A DNA stretch of 12,500 bases, from contig JADHZB010000039.1 of assembly GCA_015657535.1 (NCBI GenBank), positions 1 to 12,500 of the forward strand, given 5' to 3'. Below, one piece after another: positions 5 through 12,245 of this stretch. The position numbers and the translations under genes are program-made. The notes under the pieces were generated by a model. It did no database searches. It worked only from the letters and a program-made list of their open reading frames with translations, and was not told the DNA's origin. Numbering within the stretch: position 1 is the stretch's first letter; each line of letters opens with the position of its first letter. Source of the stretch: Nephromyces sp. MM_2019 (lineage: Eukaryota > Apicomplexa > Aconoidasida > Nephromycida).

Positions 5-162
5 AGTTGTAGTAAACGGGAACGGAAGCAATTTTAGGTATGTGTCAAAGAGCTTCAACATATGTCCACTCTATTCGATATGTGCAATGCCTACTACCCC
101 CATATTGAATAACCAAATCAAATGATTTAAGTTTCTAAATACGAGGGGTTAACATGCACTCA
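5..162 (-). ncRNA. snR37: H/ACA snoRNA, snR37-like (LSU pseudouridine 2944 equivalent)
   Basis: Two-hairpin H/ACA RNA read on the minus strand. Hairpin 1: lower stem from 159-153 with 89-82 (GTGCATG with CATTGCAC, one bulge) and upper stem ACCCC (149-145) with GGGGT (100-96). Fourteen nt after the upper stem comes ATATCG (81-76), a hinge that misses the ANANNA H box only at its last base. Hairpin 2: lower stem AGTGGAC (70-64) with GTTTACT (17-11, two G-U pairs), upper stem GAAGC (56-52) with GCTTC (29-25), then exactly 14 nt to ACA (10-8) and 3 more nt. Its right guide CGTTCCC is complementary to GGGAACG of the large rRNA. This places the U of GGGAACG-U-G-AGC in the pocket, the site modified by yeast snR37. 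The left guide pairs over only 3 nt. Identity is inferred from this target; hairpin 1 has no target I recognise. Confidence 0.62.
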
Positions 163-407
163 GGGCTAGTTATATATTAAAACATATGTGTATTTATTTA
201 GAAATATTAGGGTATATATCATTTAGAGATGTCACCAATTTACTTCTAAACTATTCTCATTATCTCAGCAACCCAAGAATGTATTCTTGTATTGTGTGAA
301 TACATATCTGATATAGCTGAATGTAATGTATACACATAAATTTTTATATACATAATATAATAATATGTATGTATATTTACTACTTTATATGTAAAATAAG
401 TGTGTTT

Positions 408-494
408 GCCTATCAGAAGTATAAATATAGATTTCTGCATAATGACAAATATTGCCTTCAGTACAGGTCTGTATTATATCTCATCTTGTGGGCA
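408..494 (-). ncRNA. SNORD25: C/D box snoRNA, U25/snR56-like (SSU G1428 equivalent)
   Basis: Minus-strand C/D RNA. Box C is AAGATGA (487-481, one base from RUGAUGA), box D' CTGA (461-458) and box D CTGA (416-413), with 75 nt from C to D. The guide before D' reads ACAGACCTGT (472-463) plus one nucleotide, and is complementary over 10 nt to the conserved small-rRNA sequence ACAGGUCUGU. The fifth nucleotide from D' pairs with the first G of ACAGGU, the Gm site guided by human U25 and yeast snR56; from memory, human U25 carries the same guide followed by CTGA. Flanking TGCC and GGCA can close a short terminal stem. C' is degenerate. The RNA lies about 0.5 kb past the RPL5 stop codon on the same strand. 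Confidence 0.83.
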
Positions 495-527
495 GATAAA
501 TAATATGTATGTTTCGACATAAATATA

Positions 528-622
528 ACACATCAGAACATCTGAATACTTTATAATGTGATCGATCATGAATGATCAGATGCAAATTACCCATAAAGTT
601 ATTTTTCATCATGATTCTGCGT
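528..622 (-). ncRNA. SNORD16: C/D box snoRNA, U16/snR87-like (SSU A436 equivalent)
   Basis: Minus-strand C/D RNA with a perfect box C ATGATGA (612-606), D' CTGA (579-576), a C'-like TGATCGA close after D', and D CTGA (536-533); C to D spans 80 nt. The guide before D' is TGGGTAATTTGC (593-582), complementary over 12 nt to the universally conserved small-rRNA sequence GCAAAUUACCCA. The fifth-nucleotide rule selects the first A after GC, the methylation site of human U16 and yeast snR87. The flanks offer a terminal stem, CGCA with TGTG (one G-U) and AAATA with TATTT, separated by a small internal loop. It sits about 45 nt from the U25-like RNA on the same strand, so the two may be processed from one precursor. 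The guide before D matches nothing I recognise. Confidence 0.8.
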
Positions 623-658
623 ATTTAAATCATGTATGTGTATGTAAAATGTATGTGT

Positions 659-696
659 GTTTGAATTGGAATTCTTAAATAAATTCCAATACAAAC
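659..696 (-). other. Long perfect-arm hairpin between RPL5 and the C/D snoRNAs
   Basis: Arms 665-673 and 682-690 are a perfect 9-bp inverted repeat (ATTGGAATT/AATTCCAAT). They are extended, after a single mismatch on each side, by a further 5 bp (659-663 with 692-696), and the loop is 8 nt. It lies between the RPL5 stop codon and the U16-like snoRNA. In a common minus-strand transcript it would form a stable stem-loop. A role in cleaving the snoRNA precursor (RNase III type) is inference only. Confidence 0.45.
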
Positions 697-935
697 TCAC
701 AATTTTTATGTCAATTATACTTGAGATAATTACATGATTGTGTGAAGATCTCAATGGGTATTGACTATATTTGTATATACTATAGGATATATATTCATAT
801 ATATATATATATACACATAATATGTATATTCTATTTGATACATATAAAGAACAAACAAACAAACAATTATTTTCAGATAGTAAAAGCATTAAGTTAGTAG
901 GGGTTGTTGTAGTTGTTGGAAAATTGAAAATAAAA

Positions 936-941
936 TTTATT
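936..941 (-). terminator. Candidate polyadenylation signal of RPL5
   Basis: The minus strand reads AATAAA, 16 nt past the RPL5 TAA stop, in a T-rich context. Its position suits a short 3' untranslated region, but the hexamer is expected often by chance in DNA this AT-rich. Confidence 0.35.
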
Positions 942-957
942 AAAATGATGACATATA

Positions 958-3119
958 TTATTCGGCGGCTGAGGTTGCCTCTAATTCTTCTTGAATTTTC
1001 ATCATCTATAATATAAATAAGAATGTAATTATGAATAAACTTAATTGTTTATATGTAAAAACTATATTTAAACATGTAAAAACTAGAATCTTAGAATATA
1101 TTTATTATATGAAATTTACACCAAGGTCGCACAGTTTGTACTTCTATAACAAAAACCATATACTAAAGATAAGTATACACACTTTGCGTCCCTTCCCCAT
1201 ACAAAAAAATTTCAAACAGTGACATACCTTTTGGGTAACTCTTTCTTTTCTTTGTTCGCCAGTCAATTTCTTGAAGCGTACGTATGATCCCTTGGAAGTT
1301 TTGATAACATTTCCTTCCTTTGTGGGAGTCCATTTTACTTTCTTGGCCGATTTAGATTCAGGGTTTGCCCTAATCATTTTGTGGCAATCTCCATACATCT
1401 TTTCAATAGTGTCTGGTTCAATGTTGTGCTTAATATAGTGGCTGAAATGTTGTTGATATTTATCAGGGTCTTCATCTTGTAGGCTCTTCATATAATCAGC
1501 TACGTGTGTACCAAAGATTCTGGCTCTGAGTGCTTCTGCACCTTCGTCATCTTTAGAACCGAAGAATTTTGAAGGACTGTGTGGGATATGTAAACCACCG
1601 TCACATGCACCTTTCATTGCTCCGAATACACGATTTCCTATATTAAGAATGTTATGGATATTGTGGGATTTGCTTATAATAGTGTATGTACATTATACAA
1701 TAATATATATATATATATACATATATATATCAGATTTGGTAAGCAATTGCAATTCATGGAAAATCTGCAAATCGGGTTGATATCATCATTGAATTAATTA
1801 TAGTTACATCTAATTATATGGTTACGAACGTTTTGTGTATATTTAAAATCCACAAACACAATTTCTATTTTTGTAGAAATTCCCTATGTATGTAAATGTA
1901 TATGCAATTTTCTTTCGAAATATATACCACAGTCATCTATCTGAATACCTTCCGCCCCGATTAAAATACACAAAAGAGTATATACCTTTAGTAGTTCTGA
2001 TGATACCAACATCTAAGAAACATTTGAAGGGTCTACGTTCATCATAGTCTTCCTCGACATGATACTCTGCACCAGTGGCTTCTTCAGCACCTTTAAATTC
2101 TTGATCCATTCCCAATTTTTGGAGAAGGCGTCGGGCCAACAAGAGGCCTGTGGCATAACAGGCTGAGTAGTTGGTCAAACCAACAGGCACACCATAGTTT
2201 GTTAGCTCAGAGGAATCAGCGGAACATACCACAAAATCACCGTTGAGTGTAGCATAGATTACTTGACAGATAACCTTTGAATTAGTTATCCTAACTACAA
2301 ATCGATATTTCTTTGTGTTGTATTTATTCTTATCCTGTGAAATCAATATTCGACGTCTTCTATAATTTGTTTTACCATCTGTACATAAATTTAAGAGTAA
2401 AAGGTAATTATATGTATATAAATACTATTAATTATTTATGTATATAAGTGTCGAAAGAATTACTTAATATTTATACATACTACCTATTGTATATGACTCT
2501 GTATATAAAAATATGTCAATTATATGTGCTCTATGTGTAAAGACGAGTACAATTGTATTAAGTAATGCAAAAATGTTCGATAAATTTTTGTATAGTATTG
2601 TCCCATAGGACAGGTCGAGTGGTGATTTGACGAAAATATATACAAACACCCTCGGTTTTAAAAATGGGATAATATTACTCTTCCGGTATACGACAACTCA
2701 TAAAATACAAGATTGGTTTAACAAGCGTTTTTTAACCGGAAATAATTGATTATGTATATACGAGCATGCTTCTTTATCAAAATGATGCTCTATATATCGT
2801 CTATGTTCTTACATGTTCTATTTCTCGATATGTATAGATGAATATTTTAGTGTATCTATGAGAAGTGTGTGATGAGATTATACTCAGTGATCAAGTGTGT
2901 GAGCAATCAATTTATTAAGAATTTCTGTGTGTTTGAGTATTAAAAATAGGAGTAATGGGAATGCCATAAGGAAAAATTTATCTCTATAGACGCATCTCCG
3001 TATATATACAAGAATATGCATATATATTATTAGTGTAAATGTATACCTCTTCTCCTCCTCATCTTAACTTGGTAGCGTTTAAAATACGCTTTGTTTTTAA
3101 CGACTTTAACGAACGTCAT
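958..3119 (-). CDS. RPL5: 60S ribosomal protein L5 (uL18), four exons
   Basis: Exons on the minus strand are 3119-3047, 2378-1986, 1637-1228 and 1005-958. They join without frame conflict (intron phases 1, 1, 0) into 307 aa, close to the usual ~300. The protein starts [19 protein letters not shown], the family N terminus. It continues through [35 protein letters not shown] and [11 protein letters not shown], then [12 protein letters not shown] across the third exon, and ends in a basic/acidic tail, [10 protein letters not shown]. uL18 binds 5S rRNA and, with uL5, forms the 5S RNP of the large subunit. Donors are GTATAC, GTATAT and GTATGT; acceptors end TACAG, TATAG and TATAG. Intron 1 (668 nt) and intron 2 (348 nt) each hold a guide snoRNA. 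Intron 3 is 222 nt, with no recognised RNA. The gene diverges from RPL7A. Confidence 0.95.
1726..1795 (-). ncRNA. Intronic C/D box snoRNA in RPL5 intron 2
   Basis: On the host strand, box C ATGATGA (1789-1783) and box D CTGA (1733-1730) are 60 nt apart. The guide directly before D reads TGCTTACCAAAT (1745-1734), complementary over 12 nt to AUUUGGUAAGCA, a conserved large-rRNA sequence. The fifth-nucleotide rule points to the first G of UUUGG, about seven nt upstream of the adenine methylated by U38/snR61. I know of no yeast methylation there, so the target nucleotide may be lineage-specific. Box D lies about 90 nt from the 3' splice site, a usual arrangement for intronic snoRNAs. The terminal stem is weak and AT-only, and D' (possibly CAGA) is degenerate. 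Confidence 0.7.
2596..2745 (-). ncRNA. snR42: Intronic H/ACA snoRNA in RPL5 intron 1, snR42-like (LSU pseudouridine 2975 equivalent)
   Basis: Two hairpins on the host strand. Hairpin 1: lower stem TTCCGGT (2741-2735) with ACCGGA (2687-2682), and upper stem CTTGTTAAA with TTTTATGAG (one mismatch, G-U pairs). Fifteen nt later comes a perfect H box AGAGTA (2681-2676). Hairpin 2: lower stem CCCAT with ATGGG (2606-2602), and an upper stem of about 12 bp with two bulges (2654-2643 with 2629-2616). Fourteen nt later comes ACA (2601-2599), then 3 nt. Hairpin 2 guides fit the large-rRNA segment GACAGGU-U-A-GUUUUA, with 7 bp on one side and 6 bp on the other. That puts yeast U2975, the snR42 site, in the pocket. 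Hairpin 1 has no target I recognise. Confidence 0.8.
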
Positions 3120-3122
3120 TTT

Positions 3123-3149
3123 TGTTAAAAATTTAAAAATATTTTAACA
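3123..3149 (-). repeat. AT-rich inverted repeat just before the RPL5 start codon
   Basis: TGTTAAAA (3123-3130) and TTTTAACA (3142-3149) are perfect 8-bp arms around an 11-nt AT-only spacer, ending three nucleotides from the RPL5 ATG. If transcribed, the leader could fold here. Chance is quite possible in such AT-rich sequence. Confidence 0.5.
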
Positions 3150-3184
3150 AGAAAATGTCAAAACGTCAAATTTTAAGAAAGAGG

Positions 3185-3425
3185 TAATCCTCTGTAAAAA
3201 TATGTGAAGGAAAGAAGAAAGTGAAGTGAGAAATAATATGTGTTAGTGTATATTTTACCCTCTACAAGAAGTGTAAAGGAAAGAAGAAAAACTGGTGTGT
3301 GTATGTGAGAGTGTAATCCTTTATAAAAAATGTAAAGGAAAGAAGAAAATGTGAAAAGTATGTGAGTATGTGAGTGTGAAATGTAATTTTATGTAATATG
3401 TGAAGGAAGAAGAAAAATGTAAGAT
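3185..3425. repeat. Degenerate 59-69 bp direct repeats upstream of RPL5
   Basis: The 14-mer AAGGAAAGAAGAAA occurs exactly at 3207-3220, 3276-3289 and 3335-3348, with a degenerate fourth copy at 3403-3416. Starts are 69, 59 and 68 bp apart. Each is preceded by a related TAATCCTnTnTAAAAA-like block and a T/G-rich stretch, so the repeated unit is longer than the core. The array begins about 70 bp upstream of the RPL5 ATG; in RPL5 sense it is a TTTCTTCTTTCCTT pyrimidine motif. Confidence 0.65.
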
Positions 3426-4851
3426 GTTGGGGACTGAAGAAAAAATGCTATGTGTGTGTGTGTATGCTATTGTGCTTTTATATCTATACATATAAATATG
3501 TGCTTATGTATATAGGAAGAAGGTTTTTTATGTGCGTGTATGAAGAACGTGTGTCAAGAGAATATGAATTATACCTATGTATGTGTGCGCATAAAATGTA
3601 AAGTATGTGAGAAGAAAATGGGTGTGTGTGTCTGAAGAATGTAGTCAGTCATATATTGTGTGTGCGTGGGAAGAAAGTAATTGCAGTATTTTGTGTGTGT
3701 GTGAAAGGAGTCCAAATTGTGTGTGTAAAGTTTTTCTTTAATCGAGTGTAACTGTTTGTGTGAATTGTTAGTTAGCTTCGAGTAGAAAAGAATAAAGATA
3801 AAAGCTTATGCGTTTGCAAAGTGTATGAATGTGTGCTCGTGTTTGTATAACACTATAACACCTTGAGCTGTTCAATCTGTTAAACAAAATCATATAAAAA
3901 AACACACTTTCACAAGTGTGTCAATTGACTTGATTAGTATAAGTGTGTAGATTATTTGTGTTGCTTGTTGCATGGTGCACATATGTATGTGGGTAAAAAG
4001 ATCTCGGGAGAAGAATAGACTCTATGTTTATAGATAACGCACAAGTGTGTTAGTGTGTAGGTTTTGTATATAATTTCTCCAACAAACATAAGCTTGATGT
4101 TCCTAAAATACTATACAATTTCACATAATTTGTATAAATTTAGACACTCAAATAGAGAATCATATACTCACACATACAAAATAATATTAGATTAAAACGA
4201 GACTACAACTCTTAAGTGATGTAACTGTTTTATAAAGCATGTAGGACACACCCCCACACACACACACTCAATTATAATTATAACTTACATCCGAAACATA
4301 CACATACTCACACCCCACAAACATACATAGACTTAGGCACAAGCTATGTACTTGTACATATATATATATATAGATATGCATAACCTACACACAGAAAAAC
4401 ACAAACAATCACATACACATACATAACACACACACCTATAACACACCCTCACACATAATACATACACACAAGCAATAAATAGGTCCTATCTTTCAACCTT
4501 GACTCGCACACAAATACATCTACATCTCCTAATCTTCTTCATATCTATACACGAACTCAATCTTCTTCTCCCTCCCCCCCCTCTCACATTCCCCTGACAT
4601 ACACACACTTTTCTTATATATAAATAGATAGCATACACACACACACACACGCTCATCTTCCTCTCTTCTTTTTCTTGAGTACACATTTTTTGTATACAAA
4701 TTTCTAATTACAAATTTCAAATTACACTTCTTCTTTTTTGATGATTTTCTTGTCAACGGAAAAATTCATTTCTGTGAATTTGTTTAGTATTTAATTACCT
4801 CCTCCTCTTTTATATTTCTACACATCTTCATCTCTCCATTTCTCCAATAAA

Positions 4852-6861
4852 ATGGTAAATCCTTATATTTGTATATATTTTTATATTCGTACTCATTGGT
4901 ATATGCGTGTTGACCTTTTTACTTCTTTTTGTGTGTGTATGCTAACAAACTTCTTCTCTTTATTTCAATGATGAATGTAGTGTGTATATCAGCGTAATTT
5001 TTGTATATATACTATGTGTATATCTATATCTATAACACCCAATTACTTGTAAATGTGTATTTGATTTATCTAATATGCCCTGTTTATATGTGTTATGTAT
5101 GTGATGTGTATTTTATATATGATATGTTTTGTATATATGATGTGTATTGTATGTGTGATGAGTGTTGTATATATAATGTGTGTTGCGTATTTGTGAGGAA
5201 TAATGTCTCTTCTTTGCCTAAATATATACGTGTGTATATACACGCATATTAACACAATGAATATAACACCTCTTCTTGAAACAAGTTTGGAAAAATTTCA
5301 AAATATCTTTATGGTTTTGTATATCTCATTGATCACATTACCTATTTATCTTGACCTATTATGATGCTCTTTACCTTTCTATGATCACATTATAAACCTC
5401 CGCCTTTTACCCACCTTCTTATAAACACCCTAAATCCACCCATATATATACCACAACACACATTCACTCAACCCGCATCTAGATACACACACTCTTATTC
5501 ATAAACACATAATCTATAGGCCCCAACCACCAAAAAACCATCAAAGCGTTTACCTGCCAATCCTATGGCAAAGAAAACATCCCCACCTGCCAAAACGGCC
5601 AACAAATTTATTGAAAAAACTCCCCGAAATTTTGGCGTTGGTGGTGCCATCCAACCACAGAAGGACCTCCGTCGTTTTGTACGCTGGCCTAAATATATTC
5701 GTATGCAACGACAAAAACGAATTTTATTACAGCGTTTGAAGGTCCCCCCAGCTCTTAATCAATTCAATAACCCCCTTAATAAGAACCATGTATGTACTAT
5801 GTGTATGTGTGTGAGCTTGGGAATTGCTATATTGGGGCGGGTTAAAGATGTTTATATGTGATGAATAATCAGTCGTTTCACTTAAATATTATAACATTTT
5901 TTTTTATAGTATATCATATATATATGACACCCTTCACACCATCTAAATATTGAATATTGATAAACATTCACGGAATTTTTTTTTGTTTATACATGTATCC
6001 AAGCTTAGATATTCAATACACACATTATTTTTTCTATACACACATACATCTTTACTCTCTACGCATAGCACACATTTTAACACACCCATTTTACTTATTT
6101 TCATACATACATATACCACAATTATACATTATATTATAGGCTGCTCAATTGATTAAGTTATTGGATAAGTATAAGCCAGAAACACCTCAACAAAAGAGAA
6201 CACGTTTGACCGCAGAGGCAGAACAACAAGATGAGGGTGAAATGGCTCACAGTAAGAAACCTGTTTTATTGAAATATGGTTTAAATCATGTAACTGATTT
6301 AATTGAATTAAAGAAGGCCAAATTGGTTGTTATTGCACACGATGTTGACCCTATGGAATTGGTTATATGGTTACCTGCATTGTGTAGAAAGAAGGATGTA
6401 CCTTATTGCATTATCAAGGGAAAATCTAGGCTTGGAAAACTTGTACACAAGAAAAATACCTGTGTTGTTGCTGTTGATAACATCCGCAAAGAGGTGCGTA
6501 TGTGGGTGGGTGTAGGGATATGTGTGTGTGTTTAGGGAGGTGTATTTGGGTGTGTTTTCTATGATAGAGTATGTGTGAGCTGCTTCTAATATATATATAT
6601 ATATATTAGAATGTGTGTATATGTTTGTATATAATTAGATAACTGTATATATATATGAATCTAATACGTGTGTGTATGTATATATAGGACGCAAAGGAAT
6701 TTGAAACATTGTGTAAAAGTATTCGGTCATTCTTCAATGATGATACTACAATGAGAAGAAAATGGGGTGGTGGTATCATGGGTAGAAAATCCCAACACGC
6801 TACAGAAAAACAAGAGAAACAAAGGGCTATAGAGTTAGCTAAGAGAATGGGAAAAAATTAG
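4852..6861 (+). CDS. RPL7A: 60S ribosomal protein L7a (eL8), four coding exons
   Basis: Exons 4852-4854, 5520-5789, 6140-6493 and 6688-6861 join in phase 0 into 266 aa, the length of human RPL7A. The first coding exon is only ATG, followed at once by donor GTAAAT; the acceptor CTATAG resumes with GCC and gives an N terminus [16 protein letters not shown]. The Met codon at 5565 is in frame but would make a 250-aa protein lacking the usual basic tail. Family signatures are [39 protein letters not shown], the L7Ae core around residues 150-195 ([36 protein letters not shown]) and KWGGGIMG near the C terminus. eL8 is an L7Ae-type RNA-binding protein of the large subunit. Introns are 665, 350 and 194 nt, and no guide RNA was recognised in them. 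The short split-start exon is inferred; the rest is seen directly. Confidence 0.92.
5330..5392 (+). repeat. Repeated TGATCACATTA element in RPL7A intron 1
   Basis: TGATCACATTA occurs exactly at 5330-5340 and 5382-5392, 52 bp apart, in otherwise unrelated sequence. The second copy runs into TATAAAC, which recurs 29 bp later. In the four-exon gene model this is intronic, so it would be an intronic enhancer-like pair or chance; if transcription starts downstream, it would be promoter sequence. Confidence 0.35.
6584..6611. repeat. 28-bp perfect palindrome in RPL7A intron 3
   Basis: TTCTAAT and ATTAGAA flank a pure alternating AT core, giving a perfect palindrome. It could extrude as a cruciform or fold as an RNA hairpin within the intron. 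TA repeats are common in this window, but here the non-TA ends also match. Confidence 0.6.
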
Positions 6862-7351
6862 ATATTGATTAACTTTCTATACACACACACCTTCTCTATC
6901 TAATTTAAAGGATACTCATATCCTCTACCTGTTTTCCACACACACACACACTCTATGTGTTTTACCAACAATTCCTCTTCCTGATAATCCCTTCACCCCC
7001 TATCCAAATTTAAAAATTTTTTTTCTGAATGGGGGGAAATAATTAGGCCTATCTATAAACAAAATACACACAATTTTTTTTGGGTCTATTTTTATATATA
7101 TATATATATACAAGTATATAAACCTATCTACACACTTAAGTTTTAGGGATGTTTAAGTGATATATATTTATATATATATAGAAACTCAACCTACACACAA
7201 CTTCACAGACATATTTGTGGAATAAATTCGTAATATATTTCATTTTACAAACCAGATGAATATATACCCAGATTGATTAATTTGTGTATATATATATATA
7301 TATATATATATTAGGATAGCATACACATTTCATGTGTGTATAATTTCCTAT
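6862..7351 (+). other. RPL7A 3' region up to the snoRNA cluster
   Basis: There is no coding sequence. The first 100 bases after the stop are CA/CT-rich on the sense strand, then come T-runs, a G-run and several TA-dinucleotide tracts (for example 7289-7311). AATAAA at 7221-7226 is a candidate polyadenylation signal. The stretch ends at the snR34-like RNA, so the snoRNAs lie either on a longer read-through transcript or on their own unit. Confidence 0.4.
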
Positions 7352-7491
7352 AATACCGCTTCTTTGCCACAGATTTGTTCTATTTTGTGTGAGCAAAATC
7401 TTCTGCCAAAAGTCGCGAAAATTAACGACTAGCCAGGAACCTTTTTGTGATAATTAAATGATCAAAAGGGGCCGTAGCTAAGTCTACACAC
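7352..7491 (+). ncRNA. snR34: H/ACA snoRNA, snR34/U65-like (LSU pseudouridines 2826 and 2880 equivalents)
   Basis: A GC-richer island with two hairpins. Hairpin 1: lower stem CGC..CTTT (7357-7365) with AAAG..GCG (7409-7417), upper stem using AGA and TTTGTTC with GAGCAAA and TCT, then 14 nt to the H box AAATTA (7419-7424). Hairpin 2: lower stem GACTAGC (7427-7433) with GCTAAGTC (7477-7484, one bulge), upper stem CCTTTT (7440-7445) with AAAAGG (7464-7469), then ACA at 7486-7488, 15-16 nt later. Pocket 1 (TTGCCAC left, GCCA right) fits UGGC-U-U-GUGGCAG of the large rRNA, yeast position 2826. Pocket 2 (AGGAA left, GCCG right) fits CGGC-U-C-UUCCU, position 2880. Yeast snR34 and its homologue U65 guide this same pair of sites. 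Agreement of both pockets makes the assignment strong. Confidence 0.87.
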
Positions 7492-7532
7492 ATATTTTTA
7501 CATTTACACACATATATATACATATATTTATA

Positions 7533-7638
7533 CACACAATATTTTATGATGAATCCAATGGAGAAAAGGAAGTGCCGTCTGAACAAATTTATATTTGTAT
7601 GTTGATCAGCCTCCTATTCTGATTATATATCATGTGTG
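7533..7638 (+). ncRNA. C/D box snoRNA, orphan
   Basis: Box C ATGATGA (7546-7552), D' CTGA (7579-7582), a C'-like TGTTGAT (7600-7606) and D CTGA (7619-7622); 77 nt from C to D. CACACA (7533-7538) and TGTGTG (7633-7638) can close an outer stem, with ATAT/ATAT inside. The guides read GGAAGTGCCGT before D' and CAGCCTCCTATT before D. I could not match either confidently to conserved rRNA or spliceosomal RNA, so the target is unknown. The second conserved-looking, GC-richer interval of the cluster, it lies about 45 nt after the snR34-like RNA. Confidence 0.63.
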
Positions 7639-7675
7639 TAAAATAATTCACCTATTAATATTATATGTATATGTA

Positions 7676-7771
7676 TGTGCATTTAATATGATGATAAACT
7701 ATTGTAATCAACCATCTTTCGGGACTGAATACTCTGATGATTCAATAAGTATCTGATAAATCTAATGCACA
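7676..7771 (+). ncRNA. snR39b: C/D box snoRNA, snR39b-like (LSU G805 equivalent)
   Basis: All four boxes are perfect: C ATGATGA (7688-7694), D' CTGA (7725-7728), C' TGATGA (7735-7740) and D CTGA (7753-7756). The terminal stem pairs ATTTA (7681-7685) with TAAAT (7757-7761), and an overlapping outer match pairs TGTGCATT (7676-7683) with AATGCACA (7764-7771). The guide ACCATCTTTCGGG (7711-7723) is complementary over 13 nt to the conserved large-rRNA sequence CCCGAAAGAUGGU. The fifth nucleotide from D' faces the G of CCCG, yeast G805, the site of snR39b. The second guide, before D, has no target I recognise. Confidence 0.85.
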
Positions 7772-8625
7772 CATACATACATGTGTTTCACATATATATA
7801 TGTAATATATATTCATATTTAGTTAATACATACTATAGGTGTGTAAAACACGAATAGATGCATATTAAGTTTATGTAATTGCTATACTTTAACCTGTATA
7901 TATACTGTGTATATATATGTTTGTAAAATTTAAATATAAATACACAAGAGTTGAAGGATGATAAATTTTATAAATTCTGAAAAAATAAATTTGAAGAAAA
8001 TTATTTTTTGGAGATCTGATCTGATAACTCACAAATGTGTAAAATTATTTTGTTGAAATTAATCATTAACATACATTTATGAAATGTGTATGTGTGTATA
8101 TATGTAGTAATGTTCTTATAATCTTGAATGGGTGTTAATTTTTACCATAGATTTTTTTACAATACTTCTTTAAAAAAATGTGTAGGCATAGTGTATAAAT
8201 TTAATTAACAGTGTATATATAAATCATTTAGAATAGATTCAATCAAAAGCTTAGGTGTGATGATGTATACTATATATGTAAAAGTGTGTGTTTGAACTTA
8301 TGTGTGTATATGAAGCTGTTTTTGCACTTATTTAAGTGTGTATGTATAGTTATTTTTGTTAATGTGTTTGAGTTTGTTGTTGATGTATACATTGGTCATT
8401 GTTCGTGTATTATAACGTATGTGTGTATATATTATATTCAATAAATTTTAATTAGATTAATGAACTTGTAAACAATTGTTTTATTCAAGAAGGTTTCCTT
8501 ATAAAAATTTAAATGTGTTTGTGTAAATGTAAATAAATATAATGCTAAAAATGAAAGTGTGTATAAACTACTATGTATATGGTATGAAAATTTATCAATG
8601 TGTATGTGTGTAAAATTTTGTTTTA
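7772..8625. other. Convergent intergenic region between the snoRNA cluster and the Cwc21-like gene
   Basis: No gene. The composition is AT-rich, with TG-rich tracts on the plus strand increasing towards the minus-strand gene. On the minus strand AATAAA is present at 8627-8622, overlapping the tandem TAA stops of the Cwc21-like gene, and again at 8485-8480; either could serve as its polyadenylation signal. A weak C/D-like candidate at 7948-8030 is listed separately. Confidence 0.4.
7948..8030 (+). ncRNA. Weak C/D-box-like candidate
   Basis: GAGTT (7948-7952) and AACTC (8026-8030) form a 5-bp stem enclosing ATGATAA (7958-7964, one base from box C), CTGA at 7977-7980 and CTGA twice near the end (8016-8019, 8021-8024). 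The putative guides are nearly all A/T and match no rRNA I recognise. The spacing is right and it follows two good C/D RNAs on the same strand, but this could be chance. Confidence 0.25.
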
Positions 8626-11600
8626 TTAACGTTCAATTGCAGTGCGTTTAGAACTCCTATTATTATAGTTAGTCCGATCACCATTTCTATACTTTGATCT
8701 TCGTCTAATTTCCTTCAAAATTTAATAAATACACACACAGATCAAATGATATGTGTAAAACAATGTGTGTGTGTATGTAATGTTTGTGTGTATGCATACT
8801 AGTATCAATGTGTATGTGTGTGTACTTGTATCAATGTGTGTGTATATGTGTATGTATAATAGTATCAATGTGTGTGTGTGTGTACCATTGAATTAGAAGA
8901 AGAGGATCTAGGTCTGTGTGTAGGAGGTGAGTGGGATCGACGATATCGCCTTTGTGAGGGTGAATTAGGCTGACTTTGATTTCGAACTTTATTTCTACCT
9001 AATGATTGAATGTTAGATTGTGGGGGACTTTTAGAGGGAGATGTGTGTGTGTGTGTTCTGGTGGGTGATTTGTGTGTACGTGTTGTGTGTTTCCTAGTGG
9101 GCGATCGGTTTGTACGTGTTGTGTGTGACCTAGGAGGAGACTTCTGTGTACGTGTGTGTGTCTTAGAAGGTGATCTGTGTATACGTGTGTGTGTCTTAGA
9201 AGGTGATCTGTGTATACGTGTGTGTGTCTTAGAAGGTGACCTGTGTATACGTGTGTGTGCCTTGCGACTATCTGAATCTCTTCTTAAGTGTGTAGAAGGT
9301 GAACGGCTATTTGATTTGTGTGTACGTTTGGGGGAACGAGATTTTTTTCTCTTATCTATAAAAAAAAATATACGTATGTATATATATATATATGTGTATA
9401 AGTTTTGAGATTGTGTGTAGTTTTAAGAGTGGATGTGTATATGTTTTGTGTTTGTGTGAATGTGTTAATACCTGTACTAGCATCCTGAGCTCGCCTTTCT
9501 CGCGGTGAAGGGGATCTAATATAGTGGATATATAGGAAATTAGTATATAAATAAGTATATAAATGTGTGTACAAGCTGAGTGCTTTATATATATATATAA
9601 ATATACATATATATTGTAGGATTACCTTTTCTTTATTGTTTGCTTTGTGTTTCGTTGATCTTTTTCATGGTGTTCCTCAGTGTGAGTGTGTGTACGAGTT
9701 TTGGGTTGATTTTCCAGCTAATTAAAATATTGAATATAAATTGTTTTTAATATATTTTACACATTTTATTTCATACATCATACTTTACACATTTTATTTC
9801 ATACATCACATTTTACACATTTAATTTACCTTATCTTTCTTGTGTTGAAGTTGTGATTCTTCATCTTCAGCTGAGGGTAATCAATAATTGATTTATATAT
9901 ATATATATGTTTGTGTGTGTGTATATACACAATTCAGTTTCTTATTTTTACATATAACAAAATGTATAGAATAATGTGTGTGTATACAGAGTATATGAGA
10001 GAATATAAGTATCAATGTGTGTACAGAGTATATGAGAAAAAGTGAGTGTCAATGTATGTACACCGAGTATGTGAGAGAAAACGAGTATCAATGTGTGTAC
10101 AATTTACATGCGATAGTGTGTATATCATCTTCTGAATGTTCATCACTTTGATCAGAACTTGAATTAGATGATGATGAACTCCCAGAACGACTCAAACTTG
10201 CCTTCGAATTTGGCGAATTTCCTCCGCTGGACTTACTCGAATTGGAGGATGATGAGGAGGAGGAGGAGGACGACGACGACGACAATGACCTGGAATGCTT
10301 TTTTTTTTTGGTATGTGTGTTTGTCGTCTCTAACTCTCTATAATATATATTTATATATGTATATATATACACAGGTGAGTATATTCAAGTAGGTGTGTGG
10401 AGGTTGGAGTGTATATGTGTAAAAGAGATGTGTTAATATATCATTGATGTCTGTTATATGAACATAATGTGTTTGTGTATGAAATTGTTATTGATATCTG
10501 TGTGCCTATGAAATGGAATTGATGTGTATGTTTGAAATGTTATAAATGTATATGTATATAAACATAATATATGTATATGTATATGGACATAATATAAGTG
10601 TGTGTATGTGTACATAATATAAGTGTTTGTATGTGTACATAATATAAGTGTGTGTATGTGTACATAATATAAGTATGTGTATATGTACATAATATAAGTG
10701 TGTGTATATGTACATAATATAAGTGTGTGTATGTGTACATAATATAAGTGCGTATATATCTATATAATATAAGTGCGTATATATCTATATAATATAAGTG
10801 TGTGTATGTGTACATAATATAAGTGTGTGTATGTGTACATAATATAAGTGTGTGTATGTGTACATAATATAAGTGTGTGTATGTGTACATAATATAAGTG
10901 CGTATATATCTATATGATATAAGTGTGTGTATATGAACATAATATATGTGTGTGTATAATGTGTGTGTATGTGTAATAATTACCGTTTTCTTTTCTCTTC
11001 TTGGGCTACAATTTTTTCTAATTTTTTCGCCTCAAAATCAAAGGCTGAGCCGGGTTTATAACTTTCGTGTGAAATATTAAACGCCTTGGCCATCTTCTTC
11101 ATTTCTTCATCTTTTAGTGCAGCAATTTCATGTGTATTCATCCTGTGTATAAATATACACACATATAATAAAATCATATGTAAATGTGTGTAGTGTGTGA
11201 GTATGTGTATGTGGATGTGTATGTGTGTGTGTGTATGTGTGTGTGTGAGTGTGTATAATTCTTACATTTTCTGAGCATCCTTTTCAACATTTTGAGTTGG
11301 GTTGTTTACCTCAGCCAATAATTTGTCTCTCAATGCCCGGGTACGTTGTTCGATGGAGACCTCGTCCATACCTTCGTCTCTGAGTGTGTCCTCCAACTCC
11401 AAAACTTTGACTTCGATTTTACGTTTTCGTTCGTGTGTAAGAAGTGCTTCATCGGCTGTGTTAACCTTCAAACTTGCCTAAATTTTAAAACAATCAAATG
11501 TGTGTGTGTGTATAGACAGTGTGTGGAATTATGGGGAGTTATGTCGTAGTTATGTGGAGTCAGCATGTGTGTGTGTGATCTAGTTATGTAGAGTGTGTGG

Positions 11601-11871
11601 AATTGTTTAGTAATTGTATGGGATCGTGTCGTAATCGAGTGGAGTATGTGTATAAGTGTATCGTAGTGATGTTTAGTATAGGTGTGTGGTTAAAAGTGTA
11701 TGTATTTTATATGGGATTTTGTGTTTGTGTGTGAGTACTTACTATCTTTTTGACTGAGAATTCATCTGCAGGCATATCAGTCCTCTTTGGTTGAATGAAG
11801 GCCAAACTTTTTTGTATATACCCACTTGTCCCTGACCCCCTTGGAGTTTGTAGACCTACACCGTTATACAT
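8626..11871 (-). CDS. CWC21: Cwc21/SRRM2-type splicing factor with RS-like tail, nine exons
   Basis: Exons on the minus strand are 11871-11743, 11477-11266, 11142-10984, 10337-10108, 9870-9830, 9717-9626, 9515-9472, 9355-8886 and 8712-8626. All junction phases agree and give 487 aa. An in-frame TAA lies two codons before the ATG. The N terminus [20 protein letters not shown] is the signature of Cwc21/SRRM2, proteins that bind the catalytic spliceosome near Prp8. Residues 58-80 ([18 protein letters not shown]) are the cwf21 helix, and a second conserved stretch ([17 protein letters not shown]) follows in exon 3. Exon 4 carries a 13-serine run encoded by mixed codons. Exon 8 holds SP/TR repeats, including three near-identical 11-residue units [11 protein letters not shown]. 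Exon 9 supplies [10 protein letters not shown]...TAIER and tandem TAA stops. The last junction (donor GTACAC, acceptor TTGAAG) is least certain; without it, translation would stop a few codons into the intron. Confidence 0.88.
8801..8873 (-). repeat. Repeated GTATCAATGTGT motif in intron 8 of the Cwc21-like gene
   Basis: The plus strand carries three copies of (A/T)GTATCAATGTGT at 8801, 8827 and 8861, joined by TG microsatellite. The sense strand reads ACACATTGATAC, starting just after the exon 8 donor. The same motif recurs in intron 4, also just after its donor. Confidence 0.5.
9050..9270 (-). repeat. 33-36 bp coding tandem repeat in exon 8
   Basis: Three almost identical 33-bp units start at 9162, 9195 and 9228, followed towards lower coordinates by more diverged 33-36 bp units. 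Each encodes an 11-12 residue block of the type [11 protein letters not shown]. Unit length is always a multiple of three, so copies can be gained or lost without a frameshift. Confidence 0.8.
9755..9820. repeat. 28-bp tandem repeat in intron 5 of the Cwc21-like gene
   Basis: The block TTTACACATTTTATTTCATA plus CATCA occurs at 9756 and 9784, with a truncated third copy at 9811. It fills most of the short intron 5. Confidence 0.65.
9975..10100. repeat. 37-39 bp tandem repeat in intron 4 of the Cwc21-like gene
   Basis: About three imperfect units of the form GTGTGTACAGAGTATATGAG followed by AGAAAAnGAGTATCAAT. The anchor TCAATGTGTGTAC recurs at 10012, 10049 and 10088, 37 and 39 bp apart. The final copy abuts the exon 4 donor. 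Confidence 0.65.
10562..10965. repeat. 25-bp minisatellite, about 16 copies, in intron 3 of the Cwc21-like gene
   Basis: The anchor AATATAAGTG recurs exactly every 25 bp from 10591 to 10891, with diverged units at both ends (10566, 10916, 10941). Two main unit types are seen: A, ending TGTGTATGTGTACAT, and B, ending CGTATATATCTATAT. B occurs as a pair at 10741 and 10766 and again at 10891, either side of a run of four A units. Because 25 is not a multiple of 3, each strand shows long but meaningless open frames. Confidence 0.9.
11195..11255. repeat. TG microsatellite in intron 2 of the Cwc21-like gene
   Basis: An interrupted (TG)n tract with TATG and GAG interruptions fills most of the 123-nt intron 2, which reads (CA)n on the sense strand. 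Confidence 0.7.
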
Positions 11872-12245
11872 ATTTTAGAGGAGGTTTATGAAGCTGGTGG
11901 TATTGGGTGTAGGGAGGGGAGACAATTAATAGTGGAAGGGGGTGGAGGTATTATACCCGGGAATGAGGTAGGGAAGGTTTGGTGTGTATAAAGTAGAGGT
12001 GTGTGAGGGTAAAATATATGACTTGTGTTTGAGAAACAGTTTATTTCTATTATCTATGTAATCAGATGTGTATGAGTTATGTATATATATGTATATATAT
12101 ATATGTGTGTGTGAATTATTTCAAAATAATGTGTTTACTCTTTTAAATAAGACTTTACAACATGTGTCAAATTGTATATACATGAGTTATTTATACACAT
12201 ATATTATATAAAATACACTCCATGTAGGTATGTATGGTTTGGTGT
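11872..12245 (-). promoter_or_regulatory. Upstream region of the Cwc21-like gene
   Basis: The first 130 bases upstream of the ATG are strongly G-rich on the plus strand, that is C/T-rich in the sense direction (runs such as CCACCCCC and CTCCCC). This resembles the pyrimidine-rich leader seen before RPL7A. Beyond about 12000 the sequence returns to AT-rich DNA with TA tracts. No TATA box or gene could be assigned. Confidence 0.4.

What the first reader, a model, noticed from the sequence alone, without database searches (positions are those of the whole stretch)
5..7771. Two divergent ribosomal protein genes carry and are flanked by at least eight rRNA-modification guide RNAs
Five C/D and three H/ACA RNAs lie within 7.8 kb, each on the strand of the nearest ribosomal protein gene: two inside RPL5 introns, three downstream of RPL5, three downstream of RPL7A. 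The layout mixes the animal mode (one guide per intron) with the plant/protist mode (non-intronic clusters). It puts ribosomal proteins and rRNA modification in one locus. The RNAs are seen in sequence; co-transcription is inference.
Basis: partly seen in the sequence, partly recalled or inferred. Interest (0 to 1): 0.88.

Follow-up and report, generated by a model that had tools for sequence, protein, structure and literature searches.

The report
Ribosomal gene pair with guide RNAs
In what is likely a relative of the malaria parasite, two neighbouring ribosomal protein genes carry nine sequences that look like guide RNAs for chemically editing ribosomal RNA and are likely made from the same transcripts; four of them match guides already published in or beside the same two genes of the malaria parasite, and eight recur, two of them weakly, at the matching genes of a second organism in the same assembly, so the arrangement looks old rather than new.

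Summary
The window holds head-to-head RPL5 (minus) and RPL7A (plus) genes of an apicomplexan, most likely near Cardiosporidium, with guide-RNA sequences on each host's strand, in RPL5 introns and downstream of both genes. Four C/D RNAs correspond to PFS8-PFS11 of Plasmodium falciparum, which lie in or beside the same two genes; that layout was published in 2009 (PMC2656528), with RNA blots and one RNA shown inside the RPL7a 3' UTR. New here: the same assembly holds a second, divergent RPL5 and RPL7A on other contigs, with counterparts of eight of the nine in the same order. For six of the eight the alignment beats all 200 shuffles (two of these narrowly); for the U49 type only the guide is conserved, and the U59 type is weak. 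The three H/ACA RNAs, absent from the paper's C/D tables, are supported this way. The C/D RNA in RPL5 intron 2 remains unconfirmed. Co-transcription and rRNA targets are inferred. A new member of a known kind; the interest lies in its apparent age and in each guide set staying with its own gene.

The parts
958..3119 (-). RPL5 gene; exons 3119-3047, 2378-1986, 1637-1228, 1005-958
   Evidence: spliced model reads 307 aa; Pfam PF17144 E 1.3e-80 and PF14204 E 5.2e-12
4852..6861 (+). RPL7A gene; exons 4852-4854 (start codon alone), 5520-5789, 6140-6493, 6688-6861
   Evidence: spliced model reads 266 aa; Pfam PF01248 E 7.7e-23
5..160 (-). H/ACA-like RNA downstream of RPL5; 3' pocket CGTTCCC; predicted target LSU U2944 (yeast-equivalent)
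   Evidence: counterpart C791:27078-27228, alignment 160 against best shuffle 158, 0 of 200; fold 3 of 300 shuffles as good; my H box search did not list it and its H box is imperfect by eye
411..491 (-). snR56/U25-type C/D RNA (SSU G1428 guide), like PFS10
   Evidence: Rfam snR56 47.3 bits, E 0.00048; PFS10 element 2 of 200; counterpart on C791 near 26378, 0 of 200, narrowly
525..622 (-). snR87-type C/D RNA (SSU A436 guide), like PFS11
1726..1793 (-). C/D-like RNA in RPL5 intron 2; predicted target LSU G1126 (yeast-equivalent)
   Evidence: C box ATGATGA and D box CTGA; 11 nt complementary to LSU beside the D box, reached in 20 of 400 shuffled windows; no counterpart found (155, 135 and 139 of 200)
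2589..2744 (-). H/ACA-like RNA in RPL5 intron 1; predicted target LSU U2975 (yeast-equivalent)
   Evidence: counterpart C791:21191-21355 in the second RPL5's intron 1 (Rfam snoR137 31.2 bits, E 0.09); alignment 206 against best shuffle 161; 12 of 29 predicted pairs kept through changes on both sides, two sequences
7356..7491 (+). H/ACA-like RNA downstream of RPL7A; target unresolved
   Evidence: two-hairpin fold with H and ACA boxes, 1 of 300 shuffles as good; counterpart C87:15249-15393, alignment 157 against best shuffle 132; 5 of 18 predicted pairs kept through changes on both sides
7542..7624 (+). U49-type C/D RNA, like PFS9
   Evidence: Rfam SNORD49 24.9 bits, E 0.026; PFS9 element 0 of 200; guide kept on C87 near 15032, but whole-RNA alignment 106 of 200
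7681..7761 (+). snR39b-type C/D RNA (LSU G805 guide), like PFS8
   Evidence: Rfam SNORD96 33.5 bits, E 0.0031; 13 nt complementary to LSU, 0 of 400 shuffled windows; PFS8 element 10 of 200; counterpart C87 near 14655, 0 of 200
7948..8030 (+). [not shown]
   Evidence: Rfam snoZ159 23.3 bits, E 1.5; counterpart C87:14245-14346 (snoZ159 33.2 bits, E 0.0066); alignment only 23 of 200; D-box end shared

Best explanation
The window is most likely the apicomplexan RPL5-RPL7A locus already known from Plasmodium, whose nine guide-RNA-like sequences lie on the strand of the adjoining ribosomal protein gene and are likely transcribed with it and then cut out to direct methylation and pseudouridylation of ribosomal RNA. 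The two RNAs in RPL5 introns would be freed by splicing, debranching and exonuclease trimming. The seven downstream RNAs would be cut from 3'-extended or multi-RNA precursor transcripts. Shown here: sequence, boxes, order, strand, and counterparts of eight of nine in a second organism. Shown by others in Plasmodium (PMC2656528): the small RNAs, the U49-type RNA inside the RPL7a 3' UTR, and one precursor holding PFS11 and PFS12. Inferred here: transcription, processing and the rRNA targets.
For: Four C/D RNAs match PFS8-PFS11 at the same gene and side. Eight of nine have counterparts in the same order at a second RPL5 (C791) and RPL7A (C87); six of eight beat 200 of 200 shuffles. Nine of nine lie on the host strand. 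Two H/ACA alignments keep pairs through changes on both sides (5 of 18; 12 of 29). The snR39b-type guide has 13 nt complementary to LSU (0 of 400 shuffled windows).
Against: No transcript data. In P. falciparum no RT-PCR product joined PFS11 to RPL5. No Rfam match in the window reaches its gathering score. The organism's own rRNA could not be used. The intron-2 C/D has no counterpart; the U49 and U59 pairs fail the whole-RNA shuffle test; one of two negative controls reached 1 of 200. By the element test alone PFS8 (10 of 200) does no better than PFS6 (10 of 200), which is not at this locus.
Confidence: 0.75

Rival explanations
1. The downstream RNAs are real guides with promoters of their own, as most yeast C/D RNAs have, and lie beside ribosomal protein genes by inheritance of gene order only.
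For: No RT-PCR product joined PFS11 to RPL5 in P. falciparum. Table 4 of PMC2656528 lists most yeast counterparts as monocistronic or polycistronic, not intronic.
Against: PFS9 is inside the RPL7a 3' UTR in P. falciparum, with EST support in P. vivax. Seven of seven downstream RNAs here are on the host strand. The 8-mers shared by the stretches upstream of the seven downstream RNAs were simple AT- and CA-repeats (seven stretches of uneven length, so a weak test).
Confidence: 0.2
2. Some of the nine are chance box matches: the intron-2 C/D and perhaps the U59-like RNA are not genes, so the set is seven or eight.
For: Intron-2 C/D: no counterpart, and an rRNA complement of 11 nt or more appears in 20 of 400 shuffled windows. 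U59-like: E 1.5 in Rfam and 23 of 200 in alignment.
Against: The intron-2 C/D has perfect C and D boxes inside a host intron on the host strand. The U59-like RNA keeps the D-box guide of its family and its place after the snR39b type, as on C87.
Confidence: 0.3
3. The second RPL5 and RPL7A are diverged paralogues of the same organism rather than a second species, so the conservation is within one genome.
For: All contigs come from one assembly. One half of C87 resembles the window in tetranucleotide use (0.68) as much as it does one half of C791 (0.61).
Against: Exons are only 49-69% identical, as far apart as listed apicomplexan species; the trees do not pair the window with C791 or C87; other tetranucleotide correlations set C791 and C87 (0.74-0.87) apart from the window (0.21-0.43).
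Confidence: 0.12

Closest known systems
P. falciparum chromosome 14 RPL5 (PF14_0230) / RPL7a (PF14_0231) snoRNA locus, PFS8-PFS13 (PMC2656528)
   Same: Same gene pair with guides on outward strands; snR56, snR87, U49 and snR39b types on the same sides; U49 before snR39b after RPL7a
   Different: snR56 and snR87 types in the opposite order; U59 type after RPL7A here but after RPL5 in P. falciparum; no U18 type (PFS13) accepted here; three H/ACA RNAs here that are not in its C/D tables
Intron-encoded snoRNAs of animal ribosomal protein genes (recalled: RPL5 and RPL7A host snoRNAs in humans too)
   Same: One guide per intron of a ribosomal protein gene (RPL5 introns 1 and 2)
   Different: Recalled human residents are other guides; most RNAs here are downstream, not intronic
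Mixed C/D and H/ACA clusters of plants and trypanosomatids (as described in PMC2656528)
   Same: Both classes of guide side by side on one strand
   Different: Here they trail protein-coding genes; no repeated cluster units were seen

Membership tests
Plasmodium-type RPL5/RPL7a snoRNA locus | Divergent RPL5 and RPL7A with guides downstream of both | tested here: met
   gene models; guides; layout in P. falciparum
Plasmodium-type RPL5/RPL7a snoRNA locus | The same guides as PFS8-PFS13 | tested here: inconclusive
   PFS8, PFS9, PFS10, PFS11 types found; PFS12 (U59) type weak and on the other gene's side; PFS13 match at 3540-3635 rejected as TG-rich
Plasmodium-type RPL5/RPL7a snoRNA locus | U49-type RNA within the RPL7A 3' UTR | not testable with these tools
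   needs RNA; it starts 681 bases after the RPL7A stop here, 602 in P. falciparum
Box C/D snoRNA | C and D boxes with a guide next to D or D' that pairs with rRNA | tested here: met
   boxes; 13-nt LSU complement for the 7681-7761 RNA, 11 nt for the intron-2 RNA; SSU guides rest on likeness to PFS10 and PFS11, as the SSU stretch was not at hand; snR56- and U59-type C boxes deviate from the consensus
Box H/ACA snoRNA | Two hairpins, H box between, ACA at the 3' end | tested here: met
   2589-2744 and 7356-7491; 5-160 has the hairpins and ACA but an imperfect H box by eye
Box H/ACA snoRNA | Pocket pairing with rRNA around a uridine | tested here: inconclusive
   pockets read by eye fit LSU U2975 and, on one side mainly, U2944; none found for 7356-7491
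Box C/D and H/ACA snoRNA | Expressed as a stable small RNA in a snoRNP | not testable with these tools
   no RNA or protein-binding data held

The most novel reading that the evidence does not exclude
Since early in apicomplexan history each of these two ribosomal protein genes has owned an ordered set of both C/D and H/ACA guides, and each set has stayed with its gene even where the gene pair came apart, so that one transcript couples making a large-subunit protein with modifying ribosomal RNA.
Probability: 0.5. Interest if true: 0.6.

Novelty: new member of a known kind. Interest (0 to 1): 0.42.

Why it matters
It turns an arrangement described in Plasmodium into what looks like an old apicomplexan one and adds H/ACA guides to it. 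It makes testable whether guide RNAs in or after 3' UTRs are a general apicomplexan mode and whether guide supply follows ribosomal protein transcription. It also offers anchors (gene pair, order, guide elements) for annotating snoRNAs in apicomplexan genomes, where here no Rfam match reached its cut-off.

Tried and rejected
Rfam miRNA matches such as mir-297 score far below their cut-offs and lie in TG/TA-rich DNA; rejected. A strong two-hairpin candidate at 650-766 (-), 0 of 300 shuffles folding as well, has no counterpart (184 and 170 of 200) and, by eye, hardly any pocket in its 3' hairpin; left unexplained. A longest-shared-word test against the 18 Plasmodium RNAs singled out only PFS9, so a box-framed element test was used. 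PFS13's match at 3540-3635 (2 of 200) is TG-rich, between the genes; rejected. In the folding-energy scan for H/ACA the best totals of 12 shuffled windows, -26.0 to -35.0, overlap the real candidates (-33.1 to -34.7), and repeats and an exon's antisense rank as high, so energy alone was not used as proof. The target of the 7356-7491 RNA was sought with one pattern in the rRNA pieces at hand and not found. L005-L040 came from patterns meant to find SSU rRNA and were not read. No 5S rRNA match in the assembly.

Full report
What is in the window. The window is a whole contig (C11, 12,500 bases) of an unnamed 48.3-Mb assembly in 1,127 contigs. RPL5 lies on the minus strand in four exons and RPL7A on the plus strand, its first coding exon being the start codon alone; Pfam confirms both. 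Among named hits the closest by identity are from Cardiosporidium cionae, RPL5 64% and RPL7A 68%. Plant proteins scored higher in bits (Brassica for RPL5; Vigna and one more for RPL7A) at 50-55% identity; the Brassica one carries a duplicated segment, the others I did not read. Trees of 26 rows (24 of 120 listed RPL5 hits) and 18 rows (16 of 120 listed RPL7A hits) place the window beside Cardiosporidium with moderate support, 97/79 and 91/93. So it is an apicomplexan, most likely near Cardiosporidium. No near-identical protein was listed.

Already known in Plasmodium. Mishra et al. 2009 (PMC2656528; I read the outline with abstract, parts 1 and 2 of 3 of the results and part 1 of 2 of the discussion) list 18 P. 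falciparum C/D RNAs. Six lie at this gene pair: PFS10 (SSU Gm1428) in the last RPL5 intron, downstream of RPL5 in some other species; PFS11 (SSU Am436) and PFS12 (SSU Am974) downstream of RPL5; PFS9 (U49 type), PFS8 (LSU Gm805) and PFS13 (LSU Am649) downstream of RPL7a. They report expression for 14 of 18, PFS9 inside the RPL7a 3' UTR, PFS11 and PFS12 on one transcript, and no product joining PFS11 to RPL5, and call the layout a mixture of yeast, vertebrate and plant patterns. I tested 17 distinct guide elements from their table (PFS15 and PFS16 share one) inside C/D-like frames of the window against 200 shuffled windows: PFS9 0, PFS11 0, PFS10 2, PFS8 10. Against this reading, PFS13 gave 2, in a TG-rich stretch between the genes that I reject, and PFS6, not of this locus, 10; the other eleven gave 50 or more. 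The case for the PFS8 type therefore rests on its 13-nt LSU complement, Rfam and its counterpart below. The four matching guides are on the same sides as in P. falciparum; the snR56 and snR87 types are in the opposite order.

A second copy in the same assembly. Searching the assembly with each protein found a second RPL5 on C791 and a second RPL7A on C87, exons 49-69% identical, and two weak L7Ae-like matches elsewhere. Tetranucleotide profiles of C791 and C87 correlate at 0.61-0.87 with each other and 0.21-0.68 with the window (the ranges overlap), and the trees do not pair either with the window, so they are most likely from a second apicomplexan in the sample. C791's RPL5 intron 1 holds an H/ACA RNA (Rfam snoR137, 31.2 bits, E 0.09); downstream come snR87-type, snR56-type and H/ACA RNAs. 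After C87's RPL7A come an H/ACA RNA and U49-, snR39b- and U59-type RNAs. The order on both sides is the window's. Local alignment against 200 shuffles each: intron-1 H/ACA 206 (best shuffle 161), RPL7A-side H/ACA 157 (132), snR39b 153 (119), snR87 164 (132), snR56 125 (123), RPL5-side H/ACA 160 (158): 0 of 200 for these six; U59 23 of 200; U49 106 of 200, since little but the guide is kept. The intron-2 C/D found nothing (155, 135 and 139 of 200 in three targets), nor did the extra hairpins at 650-766 (184 and 170). The RPL5-side H/ACA against the C87 side gave 61. Two negative controls gave 26 and 1 of 200, the latter with TG-rich intron DNA. Predicted pairs kept through changes on both sides: 5 of 18 (RPL7A-side H/ACA) and 12 of 29 (intron-1 H/ACA), on two sequences each.

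The genes need not be neighbours. Among the 120 best hits listed for each protein, RPL5 and RPL7A share a contig length, so presumably a contig, in Cardiosporidium (54,468), a fly-labelled record (26,534), an unnamed 4,579-base contig and Theileria equi (3,677,484). In the second organism no RPL7A lies in the 7 kb before RPL5 on C791 (the fetched DNA before that reads N) and no RPL5 in about 7.5 kb before RPL7A on C87. If both contigs are one organism, the head-to-head pair has come apart while each gene kept its guides.

Targets. The organism's own rRNA was not available: SSU and LSU family searches failed, an SSU pattern had no match, and the LSU by the one 5.8S found reads N. I used 3,338 bases of other organisms' rRNA placed by Rfam. 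The snR39b-type guide has 13 nt complementary to LSU (0 of 400 shuffled windows), the intron-2 RNA 11 (20 of 400). Anchoring on PFS2 (Am2946) and PFS6 (Am1133), with PFS17's C2959 falling on a C, the pockets point to LSU U2975 (intron 1) and U2944 (5-160), and the intron-2 guide to LSU G1126. Pockets were read by eye on the folds; the 5' pocket of the 5-160 RNA fits only about three bases in the window. That yeast snR42 and snR37 guide those two sites is recalled. The third H/ACA target is unresolved.

How it likely works. Inferred: transcription with the ribosomal protein genes, intronic RNAs freed after splicing, downstream RNAs cut from longer transcripts. Support: strand, conserved order, distance (the U49 type starts 681 bases after the RPL7A stop; PFS9 602) and the Plasmodium RT-PCR. 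The PFS11 result warns that the RPL5 side may have its own start.

Verdict. Real, conserved, a new member of a known arrangement. In paper searches (listings; besides PMC2656528 I saw only passages of PMC3979661) I saw no report of these H/ACA RNAs at this gene pair or of the arrangement outside Plasmodium. The library holds open-licence papers only; the earlier Plasmodium survey by Chakrabarti et al., which PMC2656528 says reported 16 of its 18 RNAs, was not held (a look-up by recalled identifier), and PMC3979661 reports 20 H/ACA candidates in P. falciparum whose positions I did not see, so the H/ACA RNAs may be known there.

Noticed in passing
G000:C791 (L049-L051) and G000:C87 (L060-L062): A second, divergent RPL5 and RPL7A in the same assembly, most likely a second apicomplexan in the sample.
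   Followed up: partly
8600-11880 (-): A minus-strand gene after RPL7A: the piece 11262-11477 has a cwf21 domain (Pfam E 3.2e-16) and an arginine/serine-rich stretch lies at 8865-9422, suggesting a Cwc21/SRRM2-like splicing factor.
   Followed up: partly
650-766 (-): Two very stable hairpins with H- and ACA-like boxes downstream of RPL5 (0 of 300 shuffles fold as well) but no counterpart in the second organism.
   Followed up: partly
10540-10950: Head-to-tail copies of a roughly 25-base acataatataagtgtgtgtatgtgt-like unit, seen by eye.
   Followed up: no
G000:C1039:10411-10560 (-): The only 5.8S rRNA match in the assembly; no SSU rRNA was found in the 9.4 kb before it, and no 5S match in the assembly.
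   Followed up: partly
L041, L042: Eukaryotic rRNA in two bacterial genome records, a Bacteroidetes MAG and a Mangrovicoccus ximenensis contig: likely contamination or misassembly.
   Followed up: no
L063: A contig in a viral collection that begins with a eukaryotic LSU rRNA end.
   Followed up: no
P0014, P0177, P0075: Apicomplexan-like RPL5 and RPL7A in a record labelled as a fly (Condylostylus longicornis) and RPL5 in one labelled as a quail (Colinus virginianus); the quail one groups with coccidia: likely parasite contamination.
   Followed up: partly
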